This document shows, piece by piece, positions 12,975 through 20,851 of a stretch of 64,000 bases of DNA (position 1 is the stretch's first letter; every line of letters begins with the position of its first letter). Both the position numbers and the translations under genes were made by a program. The notes under the pieces were generated by a model that saw nothing but the letters and a program-made list of their open reading frames with translations, was not told where the DNA came from and made no database searches. Source of the stretch: Monoglobus pectinilyticus (lineage in GTDB: Bacteria; Bacillota; Clostridia; Monoglobales; Monoglobaceae); NCBI RefSeq assembly GCF_002874775.1, contig NZ_CP020991.1, positions 434,001 to 498,000 of the forward strand, in the 5' to 3' direction.

Positions 12975-13799
12975 TTAAACATCAGAATAATGCCTGAACT
13001 TATTAGGAGACACTCCATATTCAGCTTTAAAAGCTGTAGCAAAATAATTGCTGTCATTAAATCCGCAGCGTGTAGCAACATCTGTTATAGAACTATACTT
13101 ATTGCTTTTAAGTAATTTGACTGCCTCACGCAATCGGTATTTCGCAAGATATTCCTTAAACCCAAAACCTGTCTCTCTCTTAAATTTTTTAGAAAAATAT
13201 GTTGGGCTCATATTTATATAGTCTGCTGTCATATTTAAAGTTATCTGCCGGTTATAATTTTTACATATAAAATTTATCGCCTGCTGAATAACCTCGTTTA
13301 GAATATTATCACTGTCTCTTGCTACATGTGATTTATTTTTATATGTTCTTAACATGTCTATCAATATTTGGTTTATTATACTTTTCAGCACAATATCAGA
13401 CATGCTGTCAGGAGAAGTTACTTCTTTATGAATATTTGAAAACTTTGTTTTTAACTGGTTCCTGACAATTTCCGGAATATGCACAACCATAGAATCAATA
13501 TTTTTTAAAGCCTGAGAATCATCACAAATATCAAATAACTTTTTAACTATGCTGTCCGGGAACATTAAAACAGTCCTTTTGTGACTAGTATTATCCCCAG
13601 CCACTGTCCTATGTATTCTTCCGCTTCTAATAAATACTAAACTTCCTGCACTGAGATTATATAGCTTTGTGTCAACAAAAATTTTACTGCTTCCTTCTTC
13701 CAAATAATAAATCTCATTGTGTCTGTGAAAATGTGGATTTGTCTCATAATTTCTCTGCCGTCGGACAGTTGAAATCGTTATCTTGTCGTCCTGGAGCAC
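12975..13799 (-). CDS. AraC family transcriptional regulator
   Basis: 274 residues. The N-terminal half is a cupin-like sensing domain (HFHRHNEIYYLEEG near residue 22). The C-terminal about 100 residues hold two helix-turn-helix units ending with the family signature DVATRCGFNDSNYFATAFKAEYGVSPNKFR. The start is GTG with GGAGGG 6-7 nt upstream. In Firmicutes such regulators usually sense a sugar and activate nearby carbohydrate genes. It lies just downstream of a second AraC gene that faces the GH3 gene, so plant-glycan control is a reasonable inference. The ligand is unknown. Confidence 0.92.
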   Translation of the reverse strand: MLQDDKITISTVRRQRNYETNPHFHRHNEIYYLEEGSSKIFVDTKLYNLSAGSLVFIRSGRIHRTVAGDNTSHKRTVLMFPDSIVKKLFDICDDSQALKNIDSMVVHIPEIVRNQLKTKFSNIHKEVTSPDSMSDIVLKSIINQILIDMLRTYKNKSHVARDSDNILNEVIQQAINFICKNYNRQITLNMTADYINMSPTYFSKKFKRETGFGFKEYLAKYRLREAVKLLKSNKYSSITDVATRCGFNDSNYFATAFKAEYGVSPNKFRHYSDV

Positions 13800-13876: not shown

Positions 13877-14674
13877 TCATTCTTTTATAAACTGATTAAT
13901 ACTATTTTTGTATTCTTTGGGAGTTCTTCCATACGCTGCTTTAAACATGCGGTTAAACGTTCTCTGACTGTCAAAACCCGAAAGCTGACTGATTAAAGTT
14001 ATATTTTCATCAGTTGTACGTATCAAATTTGCTGCGTATTCCGCCCTAATTAACCCCAAATAGTTTCTTAAATTAATTTTAAACTTTTGGGCAAAAATTC
14101 TGGAAATATAACATTCACTCACATTAAAATGCTGAGCCAAAGAAGCTCTAGTAATCGGTTCTGTAAAATTTTCTTCAACATATTTAACAATCTTGTACGA
14201 AATATCTGTCACAGGGTCAGACGGCAGATGTTCAAGTTTCATTATTTCCATAATGTACGACATAATAACGCATGCCCAAGAAAATTTAACCTCGAAGGAA
14301 TCATCAGGAGAAATACATGTAAGAGCAGTTTTAAATTTTTTATTTATCGACTCCCTGCTTATAATCGGATTTTGAGGTCTAAAGTTTTTTAAGTCAGGGA
14401 ACAAATTTCCAAATAATTTTGGATCGCACATAACAATTAATACCTCTGAATTCTTTTTGTCTATAGAATAAAAAGAATGCACGGTATCCGGGAATATTAC
14501 AGTCATAACCCCCTCTGTTACTTCAAAGTCCTGATTTTCAATCTTTAAATGCTGAAATCCTTTATATACATATACAATTTCTATATATTTATGCATATGC
14601 TCAGGAAAATCAAGCTCGTAATTGTTATGTTTTACGGTTAAGTCAGATTTTCTAATCTCGTATGCCGGAAGCAT
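13877..14674 (-). CDS. AraC family regulator divergent from the GH3 gene
   Basis: 265 residues from an ATG at 14674 with GGAGG 8 nt upstream; a TTG 15 nt earlier lies inside that site and was rejected. The N-terminal cupin-type domain (DFPEHMHKYIEIVYVYKG, near residue 25) is followed by two C-terminal helix-turn-helix units (ASLAQHFNVSECYISRIF; ISQLSGFDSQRTFNRMFKAAYGRTPKEYK). It has a good promoter (TTGAAC-17-TATAAT) overlapped by palindromes in the 120-bp gap shared with the secreted GH3 gene. Divergent AraC-glycosidase pairs typically mean local activation of the glycosidase plus self-control. Confidence 0.92.
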   Translation of the reverse strand: MLPAYEIRKSDLTVKHNNYELDFPEHMHKYIEIVYVYKGFQHLKIENQDFEVTEGVMTVIFPDTVHSFYSIDKKNSEVLIVMCDPKLFGNLFPDLKNFRPQNPIISRESINKKFKTALTCISPDDSFEVKFSWACVIMSYIMEIMKLEHLPSDPVTDISYKIVKYVEENFTEPITRASLAQHFNVSECYISRIFAQKFKINLRNYLGLIRAEYAANLIRTTDENITLISQLSGFDSQRTFNRMFKAAYGRTPKEYKNSINQFIKE

Positions 14675-14731
14675 TTTCCTTACCTCCAATCCAGCTATAT
14701 TTTGTCTAAAACTTCATACAATTTGACTTTA

Positions 14732-14770: not shown

Positions 14771-14794
14771 ATATATTTTCAAGGAGGAAATTTT

Positions 14795-17700
14795 ATGATT
14801 ATACGAAAAGTATTATCTGCAATCACCGCAGCTGCAATGCTGGCAACTACACTGCCGATTACAGTTGCATTTGCCGACAATGGAACCGAAAACAAACCAA
14901 CCGAACAAGCTGTATCAGCTGTTGAACAAATCAGCGAACCTATTATGGAAGACGCTGAAATTGCTGAAACGCTTCCATACCAGGACACTTCTCTTTCATT
15001 TGAGGAAAGAGCCGCTGATTTGGTAGCTAGAATGACGCTCGAAGAAAAAGTTTCTCAAACAGGACGCAGCGCACCGGCTATAAAACGTTTGGGCGTCTCC
15101 GCTTATAATTATTGGAGAGAAGGTATACATGGTGTTGCAAGACAGGGTAAAGCAACAAGTTTCCCTTCAAGTCTTGCTATGTCAAATACCTGGGACAGAC
15201 AGCTTGTATATGAAGCGTCTGACATAACATCCACAGAGGCAAGAGGAAAAAACAATAAGTATGATTTATCATACTGGAACCCAACAATAAATCTTGCCCG
15301 GGACCCAAGATGGGGAAGAAATGAGGAATCATACGGTGAAGACCCATATCTTACATCTGAAATAGGTGCTAAATCTGTAGAGGGTATGCAGGGTGAAGAC
15401 GCAAAATATCTTAAAACAATAGCAACCCTTAAACATTTTGCTGCTAATAACTGTGAAGGCGAAAGACAAACCGGAACATCAGTTATGACAGAAAAAACTT
15501 TTAGAGAATATTATACAAGAACATTTAAAGATATAGTTGAAAGCTCTAATCCTGCATCAGTTATGAGTTCATATAACGCGCTTACCATAAGCAGAAACGG
15601 AGAAGTTTTTTCTGACTATATTGCTTCCAGCGCTAACAAATATCTGCTGACAGATTTATTGAGACGCACATGGGGATTTTCAGGCTATGTAGTCGGAGAT
15701 TGCGGCGCGTGGGAAAATCTTTTCGGAAGACAATCTATGAGACAAAAACTGTTTCCGGATTGGAACTTAGACGATATAACTGCGCCTATGGCAGTATCAA
15801 AAGCTTTTAATGCCGGAAACAACCTTGACTGCGGTTCCAGAGCGCAAGGCAGTACATTCGAATCCGTTGAACAGGGATGGATGAGTGAAGAGACTCTGGA
15901 TGTAGCTGTATATAGTCTGTTTCTTGCTCGTATGAAAACCGGCGAATTTGATTCAAATGTTGAATATCAAAAAATAAAAAGCGATGTAATAGAAAAAGAC
16001 GAGCATGTTGCAAAAGCCGAAGAAGCCGCTGAAAAGAGCTGGGTTTTACTTGAAAACAGAAATAATACACTCCCACTCAAAAACACAGTGTCTAATGTGG
16101 CTGTTGTAGGAAATCTTGCTGACGAGCTGACACTTGGTGATTATTCAGGAGAACCAACCAAAACTACAACTCCATATCAAGGTATGAAAAACGAAATCCA
16201 AAGCATTAACTCTAACGCTAATGTTGAACTCATCGGAAATGTAAGCGACAGTACGCCGCTGTTTAATATTAAAAGCATAAATCTTGTTCTTGAAGATGGA
16301 AAAACAAGAACTGTTGACTTGTCAAAAGCGACAAGCGTTAGAGGAATGACTTTATCAGGTTCAAACCTTAAAGATGTCACTAAATCAGGCATGGCTGTTG
16401 TAAAAGATGTTGACTTTTCTAAAGTTACAGACGTAAAAATAGAAGCAGCATCAATGCCCGGTATGCCTAAAGCGTCTGTAAATATCAGTTACAGCAATAT
16501 GACGCAGACTGTAGCCACCGTTGACATAGCAAATACAGACAGTCCTGATACTTATGTTACAAACGAAGCTAAATATACAGGAGCTGACGGTGGATATAAC
16601 TCCACAGCTGATATGTATATTACAATAAACGCAAGCGCTGACTTCTCAGTAGAGAACTACAAGAATTCTCTTGACGCTGCAGATTATATTATAGCATATG
16701 CAGGAACAACAACAGCAGATTCCAAAGAATCAAACGACAGAAGTTCAATAGACCTTCCTATATCACAAGCACATGTTCAAATGATTTGTGACAGTTATCC
16801 AGAAAAGACCATTGTAGTAATGTCTACTGTAGGACAAATCAATGCAGAACCATTTAAAGATAAATGTGCCGCTATGTTATGGACTTCATATAACGGACAA
16901 ACGCAAGGAGAAGCCTTAGGAAAAGTCCTGACCGGAAAGGTTAATCCATCAGGTAAATTAACCACCACATGGTATACTTCTGAAGATCTACAAAAGATGC
17001 CTCTCGGCTCGCCAAAACAAAATGTTAATGGCGTTGATTATAACTTTACAAATTATGAAATAGCACAGGCAGATAATTATCCGGGCAGAACACATCAATA
17101 TTATTCAGGAACACCTGTATATCCGTTCGGCTACGGCACAAGTTATACAAATTTTGTATACTCAAATATCAAGGCTGACAAAACCAACGCTGACGCCAAT
17201 GATACTGTCAGAATTACTGCAGATATAACTAATTCCGGTTCTGTTGACGGCACTGAAATAGCTCAGCTTTATGTTACAGTTCCCGGGGCAGACGGAAAAA
17301 CTTTGCCATTAAAACAACTCAAAGGTTTTGAGAGAGTTGAATTAAAGGCCGGCGAAACTAAAACAGTTTCATTTGATTTAAATATATCGGACGTATATTT
17401 CTTTGATGAAACAACTCAGTCCAATTATGTAGTAAACGGTGCATATACCATTAAAGTTGGTTCAAATGCAAATGATGCTAATGCTCTTTCTACCACTGTA
17501 AATGTGAGCGGAAGCATTTCTAAAAATGTTAAAAACGTACACGCAGTACCTACCGGTATAAAACTTTACGGTGCTGTAGCTAAGGGAGAAACAAGTGTTG
17601 CGCCTGCCAACTATATTGAATCAAACGCATCAGCAGCACTTCAAGACGATACGCTGATAACTGATTTATCAACACTAAGCAATGCTACAGTTACTTATAC

Positions 17701-20700
17701 AAGTTCTAATGAAGATGTAGCCAAAGTTGACAGCAATGGTAAAGTTACAGCTTCAAATATTGAGGGAACAGCTTTAATAACAGTTACAATCACACCTCAA
17801 TCAGGAACTCCTGTGACAGATTCATTCCCAGTAGTAACCCAGCTAAAAGAAAAGGTTGCTCCTGAAGTTACCGCATCTTATTTAGAAAAACTGGAAAATG
17901 CGTTTAAAGCATGCCCGGAAATTGCTTATCTGCCTGAAAACTGGGAAACAATTTTAAGTGTTTATAACACAGCCAAAACTGCTATTGAATCAGAACTCTT
18001 AGAAGAAAACCTGCCGGGTATTTTGAAACAAGCAGCAGCAGACTTAAAAGCTGTGCCAACTATTGAATTAGCTGAAACATATAATATAAAATCAACAAAT
18101 CCGAGCATATTGGTAGATAATAGAATTGATTACTCAAAGGCAGGAATCGGTGAATATACAGCTTCCGAAACCGAAATATCCGGAACAATCACTGTTGATT
18201 CACCATGCACAGTTGATTTAAAAGCATTAAATAATGATGTTTCTGTTGATAATTCAAAACTGATTTGGACAGTTGAAAAGCTTGACAGCTCTTCAAGAAA
18301 AGCTCCTGAAATAGATAGCTCAACAGGAAAACTCACCATATACGAAAACGGCGTATTTAAAGTTTCAGCAAAAAATTATACTGACAAAGAGTGCGGAACA
18401 ATTATTGTATATGCCAATTTACAAATCGAAGGTGAAAGCGCTGACAACGGCGGCGGTGCTAATTTAAGTGACGCAAAACAAGGTGCCAGCGGAGGTCTTA
18501 ACGCCGGCAGCACAAAAAATTACTGGTTAAGATTTGATGGTGTAAAACTTGATAAACTCACCGATATAACTTTCCGTTTATCACAGCTTGAAACACCAAG
18601 TGAAATTAATGTATCACTCAGTCCTAATACAAACAGAATTATAGGAACCGCTACAGTGCCTGTAACCGGAGCTTGGACAAACTGGACTGAGGTTAATGTT
18701 GGAATTAACAGAAATGAGCTTTCAAAACTAAATCTTGATGCTAACGGCTGCGGAACAATTTATGTTCAAACTAACACATCAAACTTAGATTTTATGAAAC
18801 TTAACCACATAAATGCAGATATAGATGTTGTTGACCAACCCGGAGGAAAAACCAAAGTGAGTGTTCCTTATGAATCCGGCGTTTTGGTAGCTGCTTCATA
18901 TGAAAACGGCGCACTTAAAAATCAAACAGTTCAGGAGTTCTCTGCACCCGGTGATTATGTTTTTGACGGCTTCAAAGAAAACGATGAGGTAACATTCTTT
19001 ACATGGGAAAACTTAAACAATATTACTCCTCTTGATAAAGCAGTGAAACATGTATATCACGAACCTGAAGCAAAAACACTGACACTATATCGTTTCGACG
19101 ATCCTGCTTTTGACTCATTCTTTGAAACATCTGACGGAACTAAACTGACCAGCGGTACCGGCATGGATGGTATCGGCGGATGGAACACTGAGGCAAAAGA
19201 CAGAAAATATACTTATAATGGCACTTCTTATACTTTTAAAAGAGGTCTAAAAGGCGGCCGCGGCAGTGAGACACTTAAATGTGTATACTTTACTCCTGAT
19301 ACTGACGGAGCAATGACTGTACTATTTGATTCAAGCTCAGACAGATATATTGCAGCAAGTCAAAACGGCGTTGAATTAAAACAACAATACGGAACAGCTT
19401 CCGGTAAATTGACTGCACTTGAAGTAATGGTAAAAGCAGGTTCACCGGTATATATCTATGGAGGTGGAGCTAATAAATCAATATTTGCAGTATTCTTTGA
19501 TACTGAAAAAACTATAGTTGAATCTTCACCGTCCCCTTCCCCTACTGCATCGCCGGAACCGGAACCAACACCAAATATAACATATACTAGAAAAGTTGAA
19601 TTTGAAGATTACAATAAAGGATGGTACGATGCCGGTATGACTAAGAGTTCAGTGGCAGAAGCCAGTGGAGGTTATGTTATAGACAATACCAGAAACAATG
19701 ATACTTTCTACTTCGGCGAACATGATATGCAAGACTTTGCAATTATAGAATTGATAGCCGGAACAAAAGAAACTTCGCCTGTAAATGTTGAATTTTTTGC
19801 TGTTGATATGGCAGGTATAAATGTTGACACTGCTTCACAGAGCGAAATAAATAAGCATCTTACATCTGCAAACAGCATTGGTTCAGCTACTCTTATTGCA
19901 AGTACAAAAAACTGGAATGATTTTAAAACAAACGTAATAAGAATAAAATCTGGACTTACAGGAACCAAAGGGATATTTATGAAAGGAACAACTACAGGAA
20001 AATATTTGGGTAACTTTGATTATATGAATCTCATGTATTCAGACCCAAATATAAGCACTGCTTCATCACCAGAAAATACTGTTATATTGAATGCTTCAAA
20101 TAACTCTGTGGAATTAAGTGTAAGCGGTGATACCATTACTGTAACAAAAGACGGTAAATCAACACAACTCAATTATAATGAGGAATATCAAAAAAATGTT
20201 GATTTTAAGAAATTGGCAGTATGGAATAATATGTTTACTGCTCTGGTACAGGATAGAGAAACCGGAAAAACTGATATAATAGCCAGTCCTCTGGGAAGTG
20301 TTTGGAATGAAATAACACCATCCGATTTTGCTGAAAGTGATATTGATTTAAAAGGTAATGAGAACTTTGTTATAAATGATTTCATAGTTATAGATGACCA
20401 GCTTTATTTAGGATGTAACGACGGAATATTAATAACGATGACTTCTTGCTCAAAGTGTTATACTTTAAAAAAGGCTGCTGATTTCAATATTGAAAGTATT
20501 GAATATGATAACGAAAAAATCTTTATCAGCAATAATAATGATAAAAAAGAAATAGATTTAAGCAGCGCAAGACAAAAAAATATAAAAGCTGATGAAGCTT
20601 TGAAACTTTCAGAAAAAGGTGCAGTACTTGCAGACGTCAGAAGCAAAGAAGAATTTTCAGCAAATAATTTCAGCGGTTCAATAAATGTTCCTATAGATGA

Positions 20701-20851
20701 GTTTGAAACATGGCTGCAGACTCAATCAAAAGATGAAACTATAATAGTATATTGTTCATCCGGAGCTCGCTCTGCTAAGGCTGTTGAGATTGCTGAAAAA
20801 CTTGGATATACAAAAATATATGACTTAGGCAGTATTGATAATCTTAAGTAA
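14795..20851 (+). CDS. Giant secreted GH3 glycosidase with C-terminal rhodanese domain
   Basis: 2018 residues; AAGGAGG precedes the ATG; signal peptide to about residue 27 (VAFA). Residues about 65-780 are a GH3 enzyme closest in motifs to beta-xylosidases / arabinosidases (DPRWGRNEESYGEDP, KHFAANN). Asp302 in VVGDCGAW is the expected nucleophile and Glu645 in KESNDRSSIDLP the expected acid/base; an extra beta module of about 120 residues is inserted in the second GH3 domain. Then: FnIII-like (790-905), Big2 (955-1012), a helical segment (1026-1090), two beta modules with CBM6-like features (1100-1346), an Ig-like module (1350-1420), a module (1430-1572), Pro/Ser linker, CBM6-like domain (1598-1752), a propeller-like stretch (1760-1925), and a rhodanese domain (1927-2018) with Cys1987 in YCSSGARS. 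The product sugar specificity is inferred. Confidence 0.9.
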   Translation: MIIRKVLSAITAAAMLATTLPITVAFADNGTENKPTEQAVSAVEQISEPIMEDAEIAETLPYQDTSLSFEERAADLVARMTLEEKVSQTGRSAPAIKRLGVSAYNYWREGIHGVARQGKATSFPSSLAMSNTWDRQLVYEASDITSTEARGKNNKYDLSYWNPTINLARDPRWGRNEESYGEDPYLTSEIGAKSVEGMQGEDAKYLKTIATLKHFAANNCEGERQTGTSVMTEKTFREYYTRTFKDIVESSNPASVMSSYNALTISRNGEVFSDYIASSANKYLLTDLLRRTWGFSGYVVGDCGAWENLFGRQSMRQKLFPDWNLDDITAPMAVSKAFNAGNNLDCGSRAQGSTFESVEQGWMSEETLDVAVYSLFLARMKTGEFDSNVEYQKIKSDVIEKDEHVAKAEEAAEKSWVLLENRNNTLPLKNTVSNVAVVGNLADELTLGDYSGEPTKTTTPYQGMKNEIQSINSNANVELIGNVSDSTPLFNIKSINLVLEDGKTRTVDLSKATSVRGMTLSGSNLKDVTKSGMAVVKDVDFSKVTDVKIEAASMPGMPKASVNISYSNMTQTVATVDIANTDSPDTYVTNEAKYTGADGGYNSTADMYITINASADFSVENYKNSLDAADYIIAYAGTTTADSKESNDRSSIDLPISQAHVQMICDSYPEKTIVVMSTVGQINAEPFKDKCAAMLWTSYNGQTQGEALGKVLTGKVNPSGKLTTTWYTSEDLQKMPLGSPKQNVNGVDYNFTNYEIAQADNYPGRTHQYYSGTPVYPFGYGTSYTNFVYSNIKADKTNADANDTVRITADITNSGSVDGTEIAQLYVTVPGADGKTLPLKQLKGFERVELKAGETKTVSFDLNISDVYFFDETTQSNYVVNGAYTIKVGSNANDANALSTTVNVSGSISKNVKNVHAVPTGIKLYGAVAKGETSVAPANYIESNASAALQDDTLITDLSTLSNATVTYTSSNEDVAKVDSNGKVTASNIEGTALITVTITPQSGTPVTDSFPVVTQLKEKVAPEVTASYLEKLENAFKACPEIAYLPENWETILSVYNTAKTAIESELLEENLPGILKQAAADLKAVPTIELAETYNIKSTNPSILVDNRIDYSKAGIGEYTASETEISGTITVDSPCTVDLKALNNDVSVDNSKLIWTVEKLDSSSRKAPEIDSSTGKLTIYENGVFKVSAKNYTDKECGTIIVYANLQIEGESADNGGGANLSDAKQGASGGLNAGSTKNYWLRFDGVKLDKLTDITFRLSQLETPSEINVSLSPNTNRIIGTATVPVTGAWTNWTEVNVGINRNELSKLNLDANGCGTIYVQTNTSNLDFMKLNHINADIDVVDQPGGKTKVSVPYESGVLVAASYENGALKNQTVQEFSAPGDYVFDGFKENDEVTFFTWENLNNITPLDKAVKHVYHEPEAKTLTLYRFDDPAFDSFFETSDGTKLTSGTGMDGIGGWNTEAKDRKYTYNGTSYTFKRGLKGGRGSETLKCVYFTPDTDGAMTVLFDSSSDRYIAASQNGVELKQQYGTASGKLTALEVMVKAGSPVYIYGGGANKSIFAVFFDTEKTIVESSPSPSPTASPEPEPTPNITYTRKVEFEDYNKGWYDAGMTKSSVAEASGGYVIDNTRNNDTFYFGEHDMQDFAIIELIAGTKETSPVNVEFFAVDMAGINVDTASQSEINKHLTSANSIGSATLIASTKNWNDFKTNVIRIKSGLTGTKGIFMKGTTTGKYLGNFDYMNLMYSDPNISTASSPENTVILNASNNSVELSVSGDTITVTKDGKSTQLNYNEEYQKNVDFKKLAVWNNMFTALVQDRETGKTDIIASPLGSVWNEITPSDFAESDIDLKGNENFVINDFIVIDDQLYLGCNDGILITMTSCSKCYTLKKAADFNIESIEYDNEKIFISNNNDKKEIDLSSARQKNIKADEALKLSEKGAVLADVRSKEEFSANNFSGSINVPIDEFETWLQTQSKDETIIVYCSSGARSAKAVEIAEKLGYTKIYDLGSIDNLK

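What the first reader, a model, noticed from the sequence alone, without database searches (positions are those of the whole stretch)
14795..20851. Secreted GH3 glycosidase ending in an apparently intact rhodanese domain
Residues 1927-2018 form a rhodanese domain with the LADVRSKEEFSANNFSGSINVP start and active loop YCSSGARS (Cys1987). Rhodaneses are normally cytoplasmic or stand-alone sulfur carriers; a fusion to the end of an extracellular, multi-CBM plant-polysaccharide enzyme is unusual. The Cys-x5-type loop is kept, so it may handle persulfide, sense redox, or act as a covalent attachment or sorting module. It follows a propeller-like segment of unknown role.
Basis: partly seen in the sequence, partly recalled or inferred. 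Interest (0 to 1): 0.75.

Follow-up and report, generated by a model that had tools for sequence, protein, structure and literature searches.

The report
Glycosidases carrying a rhodanese tail
A bacterium secretes a sugar-cutting enzyme that ends in a complete sulfur-handling (rhodanese) domain, and relatives keep the same domain either fused to this kind of enzyme or encoded right in front of it, which suggests that sulfur or thiol chemistry is tied to these enzymes.

Summary
Window 14795-20851 is one intact ORF (2018 aa): signal peptide, GH3 enzyme, CBM6/Big domains, then a tail of about 215 residues: three predicted beta-propeller blades (AF2 pLDDT 91; with C...CxxC) and a rhodanese domain (PF00581, 53 bits; loop C-x4-R, not C-x5). 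It is no artefact and no one-off. The own genome has three such GH3s; 16 of 51 genomes searched in the order carry the blades. In other relatives the module is a separate secreted-looking or lipoprotein-like protein: 11 of the 12 unfused genes found lie directly upstream, same strand, of a GH3 gene; in five of these, more propeller units precede the three blades. The rhodanese Cys is kept in 65 of 65 rows with a letter there, and rhodanese dN/dS (0.16-0.21) is about that of the GH3 domain (0.18-0.21). So the module is GH3-coupled and under selection. A surface-anchor role is disfavoured: a paralogue group that seems to lack a signal peptide keeps the tail. Best mechanism: thiol or persulfide transfer from the rhodanese Cys via the blade CxxC to the GH3 (about 0.4, inferred). 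Rivals: assembly, sensing, cyanide detoxification. GH27-rhodanese fusions (11 loci) also exist. New variant of a known kind.

The parts
14781..14787 (+). Shine-Dalgarno-like aaggagg
   Evidence: sequence
14795..20851 (+). whole gene: secreted-looking GH3 with propeller-blade + rhodanese tail, 2018 aa
14795..14875 (+). signal peptide, residues about 1-27 (by eye)
   Evidence: sequence
15125..15736 (+). GH3 N-terminal domain, residues 111-314
   Evidence: PF00933 2e-36
16043..17146 (+). GH3 C-terminal domain, residues 417-784, longer than the 200-position model
   Evidence: PF01915 1.1e-42
17255..17467 (+). Fn3-like domain, residues 821-891
   Evidence: PF14310
17657..17791 (+). Big_2 domain, residues 955-999
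   Evidence: PF02368
18428..18775 (+). best CBM_6 stretch, residues 1212-1327 (three stretches in all)
   Evidence: PF03422
20204..20572 (+). X: three predicted beta-propeller blades, residues 1804-1926, with Cys1874, Cys1885, Cys1888
20414..20416 (+). Cys1874 of the GCNDG motif
20447..20458 (+). CSKC, Cys1885 and Cys1888 (CxxC)
20573..20848 (+). rhodanese domain, residues 1927-2018
   Evidence: PF00581; fold
20753..20770 (+). active-site loop CSSGAR, Cys1987-Arg1992
13877..14689 (-). divergent AraC-family regulator (first of two)
   Evidence: Pfam
12975..13799 (-). second AraC-family regulator
   Evidence: Pfam

Best explanation
SHOWN: the tail is one module, propeller blades carrying a Cys plus CxxC joined to an intact rhodanese domain, found next to (in trans) or fused to (in cis) GH3 enzymes, with the rhodanese conserved about as strongly as the GH3 domain. 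INFERRED: it is a dedicated thiol/persulfide partner of the GH3. The rhodanese Cys takes up sulfane sulfur or oxidation, exchanges it with the CxxC of the neighbouring blade, and so keeps or sets the state of GH3 thiols, most likely the cysteine beside the nucleophile Asp (Asp-Cys; the nucleophile is recalled from GH3 knowledge) and a second conserved Cys, either as a folding/redox helper or as an activity switch. The three-blade piece positions the rhodanese, perhaps by pairing with a second copy to close a propeller. It is probably not a cell-wall anchor.
For: GH3 coupling: 11 of 12 unfused X-rhodanese genes lie immediately upstream, same strand, of a GH3 gene (gap -23 to 335 nt); they were found by the module, not by the neighbour; five of the genomes concerned hold only two GH3 genes each. 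On a quick tree of 59 tails fused/unfused changes 4 times, at least 2 forced by starred branches; unfused L191 sits in a fused clade. In 4 of the 10 paired GH3s aligned (L041, L043, L044, L045) the protein ends in a sequence like the one before the tail in fused proteins (by eye). Intact and selected: Cys1987 column C in 65 of 65 rows with a letter, Gly 65 of 65, loop position 6 R 55 / K 4 / W 6; rhodanese dN/dS 0.206, 0.161, 0.204 against GH3 0.190, 0.209, 0.176 and linker 0.245, 0.296, 0.353 in three paralogue groups. The blade C...CxxC triad is in 67 of 67 rows with letters (L135 and L186 read by eye). GH3 Asp-Cys and a second Cys in 17 of 17 proteins aligned. A group without visible signal peptide keeps the tail. 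No SLH match in the window protein.
Against: No assay, and no distance between the Cys residues (model coordinates were not in the Python box). The two GH3 cysteines also occur in a solved GH3 xylosidase whose chain shows no rhodanese in this search (7vc6), so they do not require it. In the group without visible signal peptide 6 of 10 loops have Trp in place of Arg, so sulfur transfer there may be lost while the domain stays constrained. One unfused gene (L038) has no GH3 on its 11.8 kb, and L086 has blades without rhodanese. No random-gene control for the neighbourhood was run.
Confidence: 0.4

Rival explanations
1. Assembly module: the three blades pair (3+3) or dock on a partner propeller, so the tail oligomerises the GH3; the rhodanese is mainly a binding domain and its chemistry is secondary.
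Against: Rhodanese Cys and Gly kept in 65 of 65 rows are not expected of a pure binding domain.
Confidence: 0.22
2. Redox or sulfide sensor: the propeller-rhodanese reads polysulfide/oxidant or sugar state and adjusts GH3 expression or activity.
Against: Fusion to a secreted enzyme gives no path to the regulator; such regulators are common beside GH genes (recalled). The AraC gene of L041 that I tested lies 6 kb away.
Confidence: 0.16
3. Point-of-release cyanide detoxification: the GH3 cleaves cyanogenic beta-glycosides and the rhodanese turns the freed cyanide into thiocyanate.
For: Rhodanese is cited for converting cyanide from cyanogenic glycosides to thiocyanate (passage of PMC11311503); the solved GH3 relatives include beta-glucosidases.
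Against: The two best solved relatives are xylan 1,4-beta-xylosidases, though the list mixes xylosidases and glucosidases; polysaccharide-binding domains; in L186 the pair follows a sugar ABC transporter that I read by eye as xylose-type; GH27 alpha-galactosidases also carry rhodanese.
Confidence: 0.12
4. Evolutionary passenger: a fused neighbour gene that is tolerated but has no function for the GH3.
For: Trp for Arg in 6 rows; L086 has blades but no rhodanese.
Against: dN/dS of the rhodanese is about that of the catalytic domain in all three groups; Cys kept in 65 of 65; association kept through fusion and separation.
Confidence: 0.06
5. Cell-surface attachment or sorting tail.
For: C-terminal position on a secreted-looking protein; an SLH-FG-GAP-CARDB protein also ends in rhodanese (L177).
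Against: Small signal-peptide forms exist with nothing else but the module; the tail is present and constrained in proteins without visible signal peptide; L177 already has SLH domains.
Confidence: 0.04

Closest known systems
Single-domain rhodaneses PspE, GlpE, TSTD1
   Same: same fold and alike in sequence
   Different: those are stand-alone; the window protein is below the NCBIfam cut-offs for PspE and GlpE; here fused to or encoded beside a GH3
Multidomain rhodanese enzymes: CoA-disulfide reductase-RHD, NADH persulfide reductase, persulfide dioxygenase-rhodanese
   Same: rhodanese added to another catalytic domain (hits); a Cys relay in known cases is recalled
   Different: partners there are sulfur or redox enzymes; here a glycoside hydrolase, often with a signal peptide
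GH3 beta-xylosidases (NF041776 Xyl3A; 7vc6)
   Same: GH3 N and C domains; Asp-Cys site
   Different: 499 bits against a cut-off of 1250 for Xyl3A; no rhodanese or propeller tail is part of the aligned chain of 743 aa
NF045521 rhoda_near_glyco
   Same: a rhodanese family whose model name says 'near glyco'; what 'glyco' means there was not seen
   Different: 44 bits against a cut-off of 145; 0 of 391 class genomes reach the cut-off
GH27 alpha-galactosidase-rhodanese fusions (found here)
   Same: glycoside hydrolase with C-terminal rhodanese, Cys kept in 11 of 11
   Different: no propeller blades; no signal peptide by eye in L168

Membership tests
Rhodanese superfamily (PF00581) | match above the curated cut-off | tested here: met
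   53.1 bits against 22.2
Rhodanese superfamily (PF00581) | rhodanese fold | tested here: met
Catalytic sulfurtransferase | active Cys in a six-residue C-x-x-G-x-R loop (definition recalled) | tested here: met
   CSSGAR; Cys 65 of 65, Gly 65 of 65, R or K 59 of 65 rows
Catalytic sulfurtransferase | thiosulfate or persulfide sulfur transfer | not testable with these tools
   needs an assay
Cdc25-type phosphatase | seven-residue C-x5-R loop (definition recalled) | tested here: not met
   loop is C-x4-R
PspE (NF007627, TIGR02981) | score above cut-off | tested here: not met
   38.9 of 102 and 37 of 126.3 bits
NF045521 rhoda_near_glyco | score above cut-off | tested here: not met
   44.1 of 145 bits
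Glycoside hydrolase family 3 | PF00933 and PF01915 above cut-offs | tested here: met
   126.5 and 146.7 bits against 27 and 31
Xylan 1,4-beta-xylosidase Xyl3A (NF041776) | score above cut-off | tested here: not met
   499 of 1250 bits
Beta-propeller | consecutive blades of beta strands around an axis | tested here: met
Beta-propeller | closed ring | tested here: inconclusive
   three blades only in the window; whether two copies close a ring was not testable
Surface-anchored protein (SLH, LPXTG) | anchor domain or C-terminal sorting motif | tested here: not met
   no SLH match in Pfam at E 1; the protein ends in rhodanese

The most novel reading that the evidence does not exclude
Clostridia-like bacteria and relatives have an extracytoplasmic sulfur/thiol relay (propeller C...CxxC plus rhodanese) dedicated to glycoside hydrolases, supplied in trans as a secreted or lipoprotein partner or in cis as a tail, which controls GH3 activity or maturation by thiol or persulfide transfer; rhodanese was attached separately to GH27 for a like purpose.
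Probability: 0.3. Interest if true: 0.82.

Novelty: new variant of a known kind. Interest (0 to 1): 0.62.

Why it matters
Gene adjacency plus fusion ties a sulfur-handling domain to sugar-cleaving enzymes of bacteria, some from animal guts by their record titles (rabbit, goat). If the domain sets GH3 activity, sugar release would depend on thiol, sulfide or cyanide chemistry, and that can be tested with one purified protein and two point mutants. It also gives a handle on rhodaneses outside the cytoplasm, whose role is mostly unknown (my understanding, not surveyed).

Tried and rejected
Artefact or frameshift: rejected; one ORF, and the same tail in many separate assemblies. One search reports 34 of 60 relatives with a match, but many of these are rhodanese-only; with the blade model the order search gives 16 of 51. 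Anchor or sorting: rejected as main role (see rivals). NF045521 'rhoda_near_glyco' as the family: rejected (0 of 391 over cut-off). GH3 active-site cysteines as specific to rhodanese partners: not upheld, they are also in 7vc6. A phylum search with the longer propeller-rhodanese model matched 5 of 398 genomes: the own tails, one new full match (G555), and three genomes by the rhodanese end alone. Family searches around G203 (8 genomes) and G256 (32 genomes) gave no new longer-propeller carrier.

Literature: ten searches, eight of them with 'rhodanese' as a term (not 28 and 31). In the listings (titles and starts of abstracts) I saw no paper on a GH-rhodanese or propeller-rhodanese protein; the listed papers were not read, and only openly licensed PMC texts are held. 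Passages seen: PMC11311503; PMC12419801 (only a reference to Burroughs and Aravind 2023, which is not held). DOI 10.1038/s41396-019-0363-6, recalled, is not held. That the genome is Monoglobus pectinilyticus is recall from its size and was not tested. The class name Clostridia is taken from record titles; the genome search gives no names.

Counting notes. One search has 70 rows; five have no letter at Cys1987 (L047 first piece, L084, L086, L127, L132 first piece) and three none in the blades (L047 second piece, L085, L132 second piece). L042/L187 and L046/L188 are duplicates, so 65 of 65 is 63 of 63 without them. The table misread the blade Cys columns of L135 and L186 (an earlier repeat was taken); I read these two by eye. 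The group without visible signal peptide has 10 rows, of which L077 and L080 are cut at the N-terminus and placed by the tree. Several rows labelled fused are cut before the GH3 part (such as L042, L128, L130), so their fusion is inferred. dN/dS used 8, 8 and 7 members; cut members L058, L074, L077, L080, and L005, were left out. The tree is the quick method and warns of long branches (L186, L196, L039, L038 and others). G840 (L192, L235) is cut by a contig end and not counted among the unfused. Some starts are the first possible codon, not proven starts. The 17 GH3s are those with a GH3 part that I chose to align, not all fetched. The sensor odds were lowered from 0.18 to 0.16 after I saw that the AraC gene tested in L041 is not adjacent.

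Full report
What is there. Window 14795-20851 (+) encodes one 2018-aa protein with aaggagg ending 7 bases before the ATG. Pfam gives GH3 N and C, Fn3-like, Big_2, CBM_6 and Rhodanese (53.1 bits, residues 1932-2011). Two AraC-family genes lie divergent upstream.

Recurrence in the own genome and its relatives. A rhodanese search of the own genome (2.76 Mb) finds four: one in a small lipoprotein-like protein and three at the C-termini of GH3 proteins of 2018, 1780 and 2012 aa. The genome has five GH3 matches in all at E 1e-10, three of them these. The order search found the blades in 16 of 51 genomes, all of one family and including all 12 of the genus. The class search found them in 17 of 391; in the family of G124 10 of 70 have the tail.

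Unfused forms. Of 10 loci from genome contigs (10 of 78 pattern matches), four encode a small protein with a signal-peptide-like start, 255-277 aa, blades plus rhodanese (L041, L043, L044, L045), and a fifth does so in a broken frame (L047); each lies directly upstream of a GH3 gene. L038 (311 aa) has no GH3 on its 11.8 kb. G851 adds one more pair (L191/L234). G070 (broken frame), G203, G256 (two copies) and G555 encode longer proteins (426-513 aa where the frame is whole) in which repeated propeller-like units precede the same blades and rhodanese; I count about seven units by eye. All five lie upstream of a GH3 gene too. In total 11 of 12 unfused genes are next to GH3, same strand, gap -23 to 335 nt. 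Eleven genomes examined hold 2 to 6 GH3 matches each, and the five of L041-L047 two each, so chance neighbourhood is very unlikely, although no random-gene control was run.

Fusion history. On a quick tree of 59 tails (10 labelled unfused, 49 fused) the state changes 4 times, at least 2 forced by starred branches; unfused L191 sits inside a fused clade. The GH3s of L041, L043, L044 and L045 end in a sequence like that which precedes the tail in fused proteins such as L006 (by eye); in the window protein a further CBM-like stretch lies between. The partnership thus seems to survive fusion and separation.

Selection. In one search, over 70 rows, the catalytic Cys is C in all 65 rows with a letter there, Gly in 65 of 65, and loop position 6 is R 55, K 4, W 6; the W rows belong to the group without visible signal peptide (10 rows: W 6, R 3, K 1). 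The blade Cys triad is present in 67 of 67 rows with letters (two by eye). Nei-Gojobori dN/dS in three paralogue groups of the genus (28, 28 and 21 pairs): rhodanese 0.206, 0.161, 0.204; GH3 domain 0.190, 0.209, 0.176; linker/CBM 0.245, 0.296, 0.353; blades 0.153, 0.260, 0.212.

No visible signal peptide in one group. L005 and seven others with complete N-termini start shortly before the GH3 domain. For L075 and L078 this takes an inner Met as start, as in their close relative L076; their longest frame begins with a hydrophobic stretch. The tail is kept in all eight, so it is not bound to life outside the cell, which argues against attachment.

Other glycosidase-rhodanese proteins. A search with the C-terminus of L168 found GH27-type alpha-galactosidases with a C-terminal rhodanese in 11 of the 391 class genomes (11 of the 12 loci examined; Pfam on three), without blades, Cys kept in 11 of 11. 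L177 is SLH, FG-GAP propeller, CARDB, rhodanese.

Mechanism. Shown: a selected, apparently intact, GH3-coupled module. Inferred: that it works by thiol or persulfide transfer to its GH3. The kept Cys, the CxxC in the blade before it and the Asp-Cys site of the GH3 (17 of 17) make this the simplest chemical reading, but the GH3 cysteines are also in a xylosidase with no rhodanese in its solved chain, and no distance or activity is known. Rivals are listed with odds. Cyanide detoxification is attractive for a beta-glycosidase but fits poorly with the xylosidase kinship and the GH27 case.

Novelty. Eight library searches with 'rhodanese' showed no description in their listings. I file it as a new variant of a known kind: known domains in a conserved partnership that I did not find described.

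Noticed in passing
L168:2934-4391 (-), L167:6262-7542 (-), L204-L214: GH27 (Melibiase_2) alpha-galactosidases ending in a rhodanese with intact Cys, no propeller blades; 11 of 391 class genomes. A second, separate glycosidase-rhodanese fusion.
   Followed up: partly
L177:6178-9525 (-): Protein with SLH (3 stretches), FG-GAP, CARDB and a C-terminal rhodanese in another family of the class.
   Followed up: partly
L086 (G017), frame of 1704 aa: GH3 without visible signal peptide that keeps the blades but has no rhodanese.
   Followed up: no
L007:4289-4723 (+): Fourth rhodanese of the own genome: 144-aa lipoprotein-like protein between a flavin-disulfide reductase-like gene and a small regulator-like gene (by eye).
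   Followed up: no
L131:945-6251, L132:5425-7212, L047:1347-2179: Genes that appear in two frames or pieces (possible frameshift or assembly error in draft genomes); left as pieces.
   Followed up: no
L186:6475-10489: Sugar ABC transporter genes (by eye xylose-type) directly before the propeller-rhodanese and GH3 pair, a hint at a pentose substrate.
   Followed up: no
L005:14112-14987: Long low-complexity repeat read as QQQSRQQHLKQR on one strand, near the GH3 paralogue without visible signal peptide.
   Followed up: no
L171:1447-3903 (-): Flavin-disulfide reductase - rhodanese - TusA - DsrE fusion, a sulfur-relay protein met while screening rhodanese frames.
   Followed up: no
L044:1322-5421 (-): Two adjacent frames that look by eye like a Cas9 protein in two pieces.
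   Followed up: no
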